A stretch of 64,000 bases of DNA. Origin: Romanomermis culicivorax (taxonomy: Eukaryota; Nematoda; Enoplea; Mermithida; Mermithidae). The position numbers and the translations under genes are program-made. Below the pieces are notes generated by a model that worked only from the letters and a program-made list of their open reading frames with translations, was not told where the DNA came from and did not search any database. Positions 7,471 to 14,029 of this stretch are shown here, piece by piece. The stretch lies in assembly GCA_963922205.1 (NCBI GenBank), contig CAWUHX010000204.1:248001-312000 (forward strand), in the 5' to 3' direction. Numbering within the stretch: position 1 is the first letter of the stretch; each line of letters starts with the position of its first letter.

Positions 7471-8688
7471 AGATTTGTGAAATTGAGTGAACACTTACAA
7501 ATTACGTTTGTACAGTTGTTTTTGACAATAAAATTGACCTTGGTAGCATCACTGTTTCTAGGGGTGAGTTTGTCAGCACCGGCGGCTCAGTATCAATTTT
7601 GCGGTCTCTCAAGAAGCGGGCATCCACTTGAGTTACCCCAGCGTGTAGAGTGTAAACCACCGCAATCTTCATGGAGCCCGCGGCGCATGAATGTTACGGT
7701 GTATGTCCCTAGCTCAGACCCGATTACAACCACAGCGTGGAAATGCACATTGCGCTCCCGCAAAGTCTGCACCAACACTGGTTTCTTCGGCTCTAGGGGC
7801 ATCACTGCAGACGTCATCACCACTCAGCACTTAGCGCCTGCGGCATGCACGCTAGCACATCGCACTAAAATGTTTGGTTCACAAAAACTTGTCGGCATTC
7901 GCCCTGGCTTTTATAGCACCAACCGAACATTGGACGTGATGTACGAATGGTGCTGCAGCGACGTCTGCAAGACAGTGACTAACCTCTTCATCGAGGAGGG
8001 ACAAGTCGCTTCGTGGGACGGCACTACGGCCCTAAGCACCTTAGGCGATGTAGGTGGATGCAGTCCCACTGCAGGCCAGTGCACTACTCTAGACGGGGTC
8101 ATTGTCTGGCCTGCACAAAACTTCACGGCGCGGTGTCATTATCACCCCAAGGGAAATTACACTGCGTCCATGTCAGGGAACCACGTCATCATCGATGATC
8201 TACAGGTTGCCCTCAAGATCCCGGGAAACTCCCGTGTCTTCCAACTGTGCCCAGAACTACGTTCCACCACAGTCGGGACGGATCAGGGTCTTCTCCTTCG
8301 CATCCACGGGAGATACAATTTGACCCAAAACATGTTCAGAGTGGCAACGGACAGCTGTCCCGATCCTGTCAATGCCAAGCTGAACTATCTGGCTCAGCAG
8401 ATCAAGGAGTCGAAAATTAACGGTTTCCGGTTCACGTGGCTTGAGCTTTGCTCTCACGCTCAACGCTATCTTGATCTGACTTGGCAGTTGCTTCGCTTCG
8501 ACCCTACCCTGGGTGCCCGGGCATTCCTCCAGAGGAATGACCTGACGGCGGAATTCACAGGCGATGCGCTGACAATATGGCCGTGTCAGAAGGTCAACGC
8601 CACCTACGTTTACCATTCGTACCGGGTGGGGAACGTTTGCTACAAGTACTTTCTACTTCGCCGCCCCCGGTGGTCCGGATCTCATTAA
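7471..8688 (+). CDS. env: Envelope-like glycoprotein, N-terminal and central part, element 1
   Basis: The frame contains a hydrophobic leader (about 7513-7580, LTLVASLFLGVSLSAPAA) that looks like a signal peptide, then a Cys-rich ectodomain with several N-X-S/T sites. Marks shared with element 2 are CTNTGF.GS.G, PGF.STN, WCC.D.C, a GTLGD.GSC-like word, LNYLA and a DPTLGARAFLQR...GDALTIWPC block. From memory of the family, this layout resembles chuvirus-type (Jingchuvirales) fusion glycoproteins captured by retroelements; only a profile search can settle that. There is no in-frame ATG before about 7687, so expression should need splicing (CCCCTCAG acceptor near 7470) or a frame change from Gag. 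The frame ends at 8688; the remaining ectodomain continues in another frame after what looks like a 23-nt loss relative to element 2. Confidence 0.75.
   Translation, partial: RFVKLSEHLQITFVQLFLTIKLTLVASLFLGVSLSAPAAQYQFCGLSRSGHPLELPQRVECKPPQSSWSPRRMNVTVYVPSSDPITTTAWKCTLRSRKVCTNTGFFGSRGITADVITTQHLAPAACTLAHRTKMFGSQKLVGIRPGFYSTNRTLDVMYEWCCSDVCKTVTNLFIEEGQVASWDGTTALSTLGDVGGCSPTAGQCTTLDGVIVWPAQNFTARCHYHPKGNYTASMSGNHVIIDDLQVALKIPGNSRVFQLCPELRSTTVGTDQGLLLRIHGRYNLTQNMFRVATDSCPDPVNAKLNYLAQQIKESKINGFRFTWLELCSHAQRYLDLTWQLLRFDPTLGARAFLQRNDLTAEFTGDALTIWPCQKVNATYVYHSYRVGNVCYKYFLLRRPRWSGSH

Positions 8689-14029: not shown

What the first reader, a model, noticed from the sequence alone, without database searches (positions are those of the whole stretch)
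7471..14029. Envelope-like glycoprotein sits between Gag and Pol and runs in frame into the protease
In element 1 the envelope ectodomain (7471-8688, continued from about 8650), its transmembrane helix (about 9119-9205) and then protease, RT, RNase H and integrase follow each other, the last parts in one 1775-residue ORF. Element 2 (35514-40868), clearly diverged, has the same order and the same frame continuity from envelope through the transmembrane helix to the protease; there Gag also runs in frame into the envelope signal peptide. Known LTR elements and retroviruses place env after pol. Here Pol would be made as the cytoplasmic tail of a membrane protein. Conservation in two families argues against a single rearrangement accident. 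This is the best candidate for an undescribed system in the window.
Basis: partly seen in the sequence, partly recalled or inferred. Interest (0 to 1): 0.9.

Follow-up and report, generated by a model that had tools for sequence, protein, structure and literature searches.

The report
Envelope gene inside Gag-Pol polyprotein
A group of virus-like mobile elements in a mosquito-parasitic worm carries a herpes/chuvirus-like envelope protein in the middle of one long reading frame, between the capsid part and the copying enzymes, instead of at the end as is usual in retroviruses.

Summary
Both window elements are LTR elements with Ty3/gypsy-type domains in the order Gag – signal peptide – glycoprotein – membrane helix – protease – RT – RNase H – integrase. 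The glycoprotein matches Pfam Monjiviricetes_fusion (E 2e-16, element 2), and a profile of its relatives matches herpesvirus gB chains (E 1e-5). Both window copies are damaged. In the same genome (size and contig count match Romanomermis culicivorax v2), 65 of 105 scored family-1 copies lie in an open frame of at least 3,080 codons and 48 of 75 family-2 copies in one of at least 2,470. Of 62 env loci read with short flanks, 62 have a pol-type domain downstream (59 in the env frame) and none upstream. Four families with 44–58% env identity keep the order, and their env and RT identities rank alike. Env pN/pS is 0.03–0.04 in the two large families (sampling caveat; two single-pair comparisons are higher). 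A contig of unknown species is colinear. New here are the gB/chuvirus-like type, ordinary size, multi-family conservation and selection evidence. Expression as one membrane-spanning polyprotein is inferred, not tested.

The parts
1..1262 (+). Element 1 (family F1) 5' LTR, possibly cut by the window edge
   Evidence: 99.84% identical to 14767-16028 over 1262 bp
4774..5577 (+). Element 1 Gag capsid region
   Evidence: PF19259 Ty3_capsid E 5.2e-8, residues 111-258
5581..7454 (+). Element 1 Gag nucleocapsid (a C-X2-C-X4-H-X4-C motif by eye; no Pfam zinc-knuckle hit) and acidic/proline-rich tail, in two frames in this damaged copy
   Evidence: ORFs 5581-6891 and 6687-7454; Pfam none; NC piece matches sister copies at 98-100%
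7516..7587 (+). Element 1 internal signal peptide (hydrophobic core 7516-7572); nearest upstream in-frame Met about 100 residues away in sister copy L036
7588..9124 (+). Element 1 Env ectodomain (Monjiviricetes_fusion/gB-like), interrupted near 8650 in this copy
   Evidence: PF24664 E 4e-6, just under cut-off; 42% and 37% identical to element 2 Env in two pieces
9125..9181 (+). Element 1 Env transmembrane helix
   Evidence: hydropathy on sister copy L036; place
9251..9850 (+). Element 1 extra aspartyl-protease-like domain (PR-A), DTG at 9389 and ILGLDFL at about 9644; seen in F1 only
   Evidence: PF13975 E 0.0094, below cut-off, and three other weak protease matches; in the Env frame in 11 F1 sister loci; place
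10343..10627 (+). Element 1 canonical aspartyl protease (PR-B)
   Evidence: PF13975 E 6e-10
11321..12379 (+). Element 1 RT and RNase H
   Evidence: PF00078 2.6e-34, PF17919 1.4e-36
12824..14029 (+). Element 1 integrase (H2C2, rve) to the end of the ORF
   Evidence: PF17921 1.2e-21, PF00665 9.9e-9
14767..16028 (+). Element 1 3' LTR
32559..33449 (+). Element 2 (family F2) 5' LTR; true end perhaps about 33466 judging by a sister copy
   Evidence: 96% to 40900-41790; sister LTR pair 898 bp
33478..34257 (+). Element 2 Gag capsid region
   Evidence: PNMA PF14893 E 0.0024, below cut-off; sister copy PF03732 3e-6, over cut-off
34398..35459 (+). Element 2 Gag nucleocapsid with CCHC knuckles
   Evidence: PF00098 E 3e-9
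35460..35513 (+). Element 2 internal signal peptide in Gag's frame, then a stop in this copy
   Evidence: sister copy
35514..37038 (+). Element 2 Env ectodomain; frame changes about 35583 in this copy
   Evidence: PF24664 E 2.1e-16, PF00606 gB 0.0017 (below cut-off)
37039..37095 (+). Element 2 Env transmembrane helix
   Evidence: sister copy hydropathy 2.4
37291..37650 (+). Element 2 protease region, same frame as Env and RT, bounded by two premature stops in this copy
   Evidence: stop map of L001; sister copy piece PF13975 E 2.1e-9
38374..39411 (+). Element 2 RT and RNase H
   Evidence: PF00078 1.2e-34, PF17919 1.4e-36
39757..40866 (+). Element 2 integrase, broken in this copy
   Evidence: PF17921 5.7e-22
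40900..41790 (+). Element 2 3' LTR

Best explanation
These are endogenous, retrovirus-like LTR elements with Ty3/gypsy-type domains. Long ago an ancestor took up a chuvirus/gB-like fusion glycoprotein and placed it in frame between Gag and protease. It is carried today as Gag - signal peptide - Env - TM - protease - RT - RNase H - integrase in one open frame of about 2,000-3,100 codons. Most likely working: ribosomes read the genomic RNA from Gag; the internal signal peptide sends the chain into the ER, and signal peptidase frees the mature Env N-terminus; the TM helix stops transfer, so protease and Pol stay in the cytosol as Env's tail; the viral protease later cuts Gag and Pol free. The result is a membrane-anchored supply of Pol beside Env and Gag, a topology like that of alpha- and flavivirus polyproteins (recalled). 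Shown: order, frame, conservation, selection, young copies. Inferred: single-mRNA translation, topology, processing, and an entry role for Env.
For: Domain order in one frame by Pfam on separate pieces of F2, F3 and F4. Long frames in 65/105, 48/75 and, when copies are picked by RT and not env, 60/112 scored copies (counts 120, 118). 62/62 env loci have a pol-type domain downstream, 59 in the env frame, 0 upstream; gag was found upstream in 49, 47 of them in the env frame (in the 12 F1 loci the domain within the flank is PR-A only). Env and RT-RNase H identities rank four families alike, F2-F3 highest and F1-F4 next, which suggests env was co-inherited with pol. pN/pS of the Env ectodomain is 0.041 (19 open F2 copies), and 0.031 for an F1 Env part that was not in the ranking query; protease+RT is 0.057. 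The ectodomain has 16 Cys in the one locus read of each of F1-F5. The nearest in-frame Met lies 65-148 residues before mature Env in the one locus read of each of F1-F4. In an F2 copy the 3' LTR begins about 31 nt after the pol stop codon, leaving no room for another env. gB match. Other DNA: P0013 is colinear over 550 aa from Env through TM and protease to pre-RT; P0019, a UniRef protein of R. culicivorax, has gag-env-protease order.
Against: No RNA or protein data. Equal molar Gag and Pol is unusual; splicing or partial cleavage may adjust it. F5 has in-frame Mets 33-38 residues before mature Env and its two copies are damaged. The homologue P0001 appears to end about 60 residues after its TM instead of running into protease (contig not seen). 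Two single-pair Env comparisons give weaker pN/pS: 0.193 (F3) and 0.597 (F4, few changes). Structure prediction could not be run, so the class III fold rests on sequence profiles. That the 3,092-codon F1 frame reaches through pol is inferred from the window copy's layout; F1 sister copies were read only to PR-A. The shared-descent argument is a ranking of pairwise identities, not a tree.
Confidence: 0.68

Rival explanations
1. The frame is one, but expression is not: spliced subgenomic mRNAs join a leader AUG to the signal peptide (env-pol or env message), and Gag comes from another message, as copia splices out pol (recalled).
For: Retroviral env is normally made from a spliced mRNA, and Cer1 in C. 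elegans makes a spliced product (passages of PMC10309623). Equal Gag:Pol from one chain is a burden. F5 has Mets near the signal peptide.
Against: In one locus each of F1-F4 no Met lies within 65 residues of mature Env. Keeping gag, env and pol in one frame across families is not needed if they are spliced apart. Splice-site conservation was not tested.
Confidence: 0.22
2. Env no longer serves entry; it is kept as a membrane anchor that places Gag-Pol particles at the ER or another membrane inside the cell.
For: Pol is in one frame with Env; many LTR elements spread without leaving the cell (general knowledge).
Against: In F1 and F2, purifying selection on the ectodomain as strong as on protease+RT, with 16 Cys and several N-glycosylation sequons kept, is more than an anchor would need. 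The F3 and F4 pairs are weaker.
Confidence: 0.08
3. Assembly error, chance frame or one rearranged copy.
For: Both window copies are broken.
Against: 180 env copies scored in two families, window copies included, with recurrent frame lengths; further families; P0013 from another source and the UniRef protein P0019 agree in order.
Confidence: 0.01
4. Env was captured separately by each family.
For: Env identity is lower than RT identity (44-58% against 60-70%).
Against: Same position, same frame, and the same ranking of families by env and by RT-RNase H.
Confidence: 0.03

Closest known systems
Burro giant Gypsy-like elements of planarians (PMC6431247, section 7 read)
   Same: env homology in frame between gag and PR in one polyprotein of a Gypsy-like element
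   Different: Burro exceeds 30 kb with BIR, ankyrin, BCL2-like and dUTPase domains; its env is described as related to gypsy Env and to fusion glycoproteins of baculoviruses, retroviruses, paramyxoviruses and mononegaviruses. Here the internal region is about 7.4-13.5 kb, and Env is Monjiviricetes_fusion/gB-like. Burro sequences were not compared, so its Env could prove to be related.
Atlas virus, hookworm Belpaovirus (PMC9094657, passages)
   Same: nematode element coding one 2828-residue polyprotein that includes Env from an RNA-virus glycoprotein
   Different: order Gag-Pol-Env, phlebovirus Gc class II Env at the C-terminus, BEL/Pao RT
Anakin, mosquito BEL-Pao element with chuvirus glycoprotein (PMC7642597, passages)
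   Same: chuvirus-type glycoprotein captured by an LTR element
   Different: Pao lineage; the passages place envelope-like proteins of known BEL-Pao elements downstream of the polyprotein. A follow-up (PMC10084718, passages) found Gypsy fragments near such glycoproteins but no clear capture by Gypsy.
Cer1 of C. elegans (PMC10309623, passages)
   Same: nematode Gypsy/Ty3 element with a long polyprotein
   Different: its extra protein CERV serves RNA export and its C-terminal part lies at the polyprotein end; no gB-like Env in the passages seen
Env-bearing gypsy elements and TelKA of rotifers (PMC5408684, passages; PMC6431247)
   Same: Gypsy-type elements with a viral fusion glycoprotein
   Different: env is a separate ORF, usually ORF3 after pol

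Membership tests
Ty3/gypsy (Metaviridae) LTR elements | order PR-RT-RNase H-integrase after Gag, LTRs, short target duplication | tested here: met
   4-bp duplication GTAT around an F2 copy. BEL/Pao elements share this domain order, so it does not separate the two.
Ty3/gypsy (Metaviridae) LTR elements | RT clusters with Metaviridae and not Belpaoviridae in a tree | not tested
   no reference RT set at hand; Ty3_capsid hit in element 1 is indirect support
Monjiviricetes/chuvirus-type fusion glycoprotein | match to PF24664 above its curated cut-off | tested here: met
   59.5 bits against 27 for element 2; 68 of 68 scored loci over cut-off, 0 of 14 control genomes; element 1's own piece is 25.5, just under
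Class III (gB-like) fusion protein | class III fold | tested here: inconclusive
   profile matches gB chains in the PDB, E 1.2e-5, over 132 profile positions; gB Pfam matches are below cut-off; no single-sequence PDB match; folding job failed and tool switched off
Burro-type gag-env-pol elements | env in frame between gag and PR | tested here: met
Burro-type gag-env-pol elements | giant size with extra cellular domains and dUTPase | tested here: not met
   frames of about 2,000-3,100 codons; no BIR, ankyrin or BCL2 match in the pieces scanned, apart from a chance-level BH4 match (E 0.1, below cut-off) inside the element 1 RT; one F5 piece has a weak, below-cut-off dCTP deaminase-like match after the protease (E 0.0095)
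Errantivirus / canonical env-bearing LTR element | env after pol | tested here: not met
   0 of 62 env loci with a pol domain upstream within the flank; about 31 nt from pol stop to LTR in an F2 copy
Atlas-type single polyprotein | Env in one ORF with Gag and Pol | tested here: met
Atlas-type single polyprotein | Env last, phlebovirus Gc | tested here: not met

The most novel reading that the evidence does not exclude
A distinct, old lineage of enveloped Ty3/gypsy-type elements in nematodes makes Gag, a gB/chuvirus-like fusogen and Pol as one chain threaded through the ER membrane, so that Pol enters the virion as the cytoplasmic tail of Env. This would be a genome plan and Pol-packaging route different from retroviruses (frameshift or readthrough Gag-Pol) and foamy viruses (separate Pol).
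Probability: 0.45. Interest if true: 0.82.

Novelty: new variant of a known kind. Interest (0 to 1): 0.64.

Why it matters
It is the second case I found, after Burro, of env placed inside Gag-Pol. It has a gB/chuvirus-like glycoprotein, ordinary element size, several families and signs of selection. It makes a concrete question testable: can a retroelement package its polymerase by tying it to its envelope protein? It is also a clear capture of a chuvirus-type glycoprotein by a Gypsy-type element, which a 2023 arthropod-centred survey (PMC10084718, passages) reported not finding.

Tried and rejected
Leads that gave nothing: viral-contig scan with Env (no relative); protein search with the env-pol ORF, residues 30-720 (none; the Arg/Ser-rich linker may have crowded the candidates); PDB by single sequence (none); Rfam in the window (one tRNA) and Rfam and ARAGORN in six flanking loci (none), so no support for tRNA targeting; paper searches for 'gag-env-pol' with retrotransposon or polyprotein returned 0 papers in the held library.

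Rejected readings: Cer1/CERV-like; Anakin-like; chance; assembly error; a downstream env. In one search the motif for F2 hit the zinc knuckle, and one search replaced it. In one search one locus was out of register, and one search replaced it. In one search the F1 gag rows were not codon-aligned (indels) and are not used. In one search the PR rows involving F4 were out of frame and are not used. Selection caveat: F2 copies were ranked by env score, and the 19 compared (of 20 open ones among 30 loci; L002 dropped for register) were chosen open; F1 used 10 of 11 sister loci (L038 dropped, it has a stop) and all 11. F3 (0.193, one pair) and F4 (0.597, one pair, few changes) are weaker. Window element 2 against F2 copies: nucleocapsid 0.278, env 0.228, RT 0.082. 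In F3 the capsid match is weak (PNMA 0.0062); in F4 the capsid match is below cut-off and no zinc knuckle was hit; protease matches in F3, F4 and F5 are below the curated cut-offs.

Full report
WHAT WAS CHECKED. Both elements exist as described. Element 1 spans the left end of the window to 16028, with LTRs 99.84% identical. Element 2 spans 32559-41790, with LTRs 96% identical. Pfam on separate ORFs gives Gag capsid or CCHC, then Monjiviricetes_fusion, then pol domains, in that order. The element 2 glycoprotein scores 59.5 bits against a cut-off of 27; element 1's own piece scores 25.5, just below it. The two Envs are 42% (N-terminal piece) and 37% (C-terminal piece) identical.

THE WINDOW COPIES ARE DAMAGED. 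Element 1 has a stop after the capsid region, frame changes in the Gag tail, and a break near 8650 inside Env. Element 2 changes frame soon after the signal peptide and has stops before and after the protease. The frame claim therefore needs other copies.

OTHER COPIES. The window lies in an assembly of 359,112,060 bases in 595 contigs. The published R. culicivorax v2 assembly has 359.1 Mb in 595 scaffolds (PMC10879605, passages), and 7 of 12 Env relatives carry that species' name, so the host is almost certainly this mermithid nematode. With element 2 Env, 75 copies were scored and 48 lie in an open frame of at least 2,470 codons. With the element 1 Env N-terminal piece, 105 were scored and 65 lie in at least 3,080 codons, 59 of them exactly 3,092 or 3,100 (each list includes the window's own copy). 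When copies are picked by RT instead, 60 of 112 have at least 2,470 codons. Only the best candidates are scored, so these are lower bounds on copy number. Of 30 family-2 loci of 4.7 kb, 20 have no stop at all.

FAMILIES. A Pfam search of the genome gave 68 scored loci, all over the cut-off, and none in 14 control genomes. The 20 loci read from it, plus the others, fall into at least five families by identity to the two window Envs. In F3 (L066, L051, L065) and F4 (L064, L059, L063), overlapping pieces show one open frame from a first Met of 2,472 and 2,048 codons. In F2 (L067, L009, L068) the frame is 2,407 codons from the first Met; a 0.6-kb gap between pieces is covered only by the tool's open-frame length. 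Pfam on the pieces gives, for F2, Gag (3e-6), CCHC, Monjiviricetes_fusion (7.1e-19), protease (2.1e-9), RT (2e-29) and integrase. For F3 it gives CCHC, fusion glycoprotein, protease just under cut-off, RT, RNase H and integrase. For F4 it gives capsid under cut-off, fusion glycoprotein, protease under cut-off, RT and RNase H; that copy's frame ends before integrase. Over all 62 env loci, pol-type domains are downstream in 62 (59 in the env frame; not L045, L048, L057) and upstream in none. In the 12 F1 loci the flank reaches only PR-A, and upstream flanks are at most 1.5 kb, shorter in some. Gag was recognised upstream in 49, in 47 of those in the env frame; 10 of the 13 misses look like F3, whose Gag lies outside the short flank or is too diverged for the window queries.

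SHARED DESCENT AND SELECTION. Env identity ranks F2-F3 57.7%, F1-F4 47.2%, the rest 44-45%. RT-RNase H ranks F2-F3 70.3%, F1-F4 67.3%, the rest 60-64%. This fits one old capture inherited with pol, though no tree was built. Among 19 open F2 copies (171 pairs), pN/pS is 0.041 for the Env ectodomain, 0.057 for protease+RT and 0.265 for nucleocapsid. Ranking by Env score biases the first number. In F1 the Env part that was not in the ranking query gives 0.031, with variable sites 0/2/13 by codon position in 10 copies. Single pairs in F3 and F4 give 0.193 and 0.597, the latter on few changes. So in the two large families Env was under constraint while the elements multiplied.

ANATOMY. A hydrophobic segment sits directly before a conserved mature start (CGxSxxGH) and a second one ends the ectodomain; 16 cysteines lie between them in the one locus read of each of F1-F5. 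The nearest in-frame Met before mature Env is 101, 148, 65 and 99 residues away in F1, F2, F3 and F4, and 33 in F5. The tail after the helix is basic and leads into the protease. A profile of seven Env sequences matches herpesvirus gB chains over 132 positions at E 1.2e-5. One F2 copy has LTRs 99.4% identical and a 4-bp target duplication.

OTHER DNA. P0013, from a 2.1-kb contig of another public source and unknown species, is colinear with F4 over 550 residues at 37% identity, from Env through the helix and protease to just before RT. P0019, a UniRef protein of R. culicivorax whose assembly I did not trace, has Gag, Env and protease pieces in that order. P0001, a 35% homologue, appears to end soon after its helix; its contig was not seen.

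HOW IT MOST LIKELY WORKS. The cheapest reading of one conserved frame without a nearby Env start codon is one chain: Gag in the cytosol, signal peptide into the ER, Env outside, helix through the membrane, protease and Pol back in the cytosol, then cuts by signal peptidase and the element's own protease. Order, frame and conservation are shown. Translation as one chain, topology, processing and entry are inferred. Splicing remains the chief rival.

WHAT IS KNOWN. Burro of planarians is the printed precedent for env in frame between gag and pol (PMC6431247, section 7). Atlas virus of a hookworm is the precedent for Env in a single polyprotein, but with Env last (PMC9094657, passages). Anakin is the precedent for chuvirus glycoprotein capture, in Pao elements (PMC7642597, passages). 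PMC10084718 (passages) reports no clear capture by Gypsy elements, though it found two such glycoproteins in Nematoda, the species not stated in the passages seen. The present elements combine the three: a chuvirus/gB-like Env, Gypsy-type Pol, and the internal position. I therefore rate it a new variant of a known kind. Similarity to alpha- and flavivirus polyprotein topology is recalled, not tested.

Noticed in passing
9251-10627: Family 1 carries two aspartyl-protease-like domains in tandem, with an Arg/Ser-rich linker (9818-9949) between; the first matches only weakly (PF13975 E 0.0094) but is kept in the Env frame in 11 sister loci, with pN/pS 0.13 in the 10 compared.
   Followed up: partly
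46973-51141: A third, small LTR element (LTRs 94% identical) keeps capsid (74% to element 2), nucleocapsid (44%) and pre-RT (42%) matches, but tblastn found no Env, protease, RT or integrase match; it has a 200-bp internal tandem duplication at 49427-49827.
   Followed up: partly
46894-46966 and 41885-41940: A tRNA-Ser gene ends 6 bases before the third element's LTR, and a tRNA-like stretch lies about 95 bases after element 2; no tRNA was found in six flanking loci of other copies, including both sides of an F2 copy.
   Followed up: partly
1263-4773: About 3.5 kb between the element 1 5' LTR and gag has no open frame over 120 codons on the + strand: an unusually long leader.
   Followed up: no
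L050:1501-3576: The F5 piece has a weak, below-cut-off dCTP deaminase-like match after the protease (PF22769 E 0.0095); Burro is reported to have a dUTPase between PR and RT.
   Followed up: no
60269-61114: Minus-strand host gene in one open frame with both galactosyltransferase family 7 domains.
   Followed up: partly
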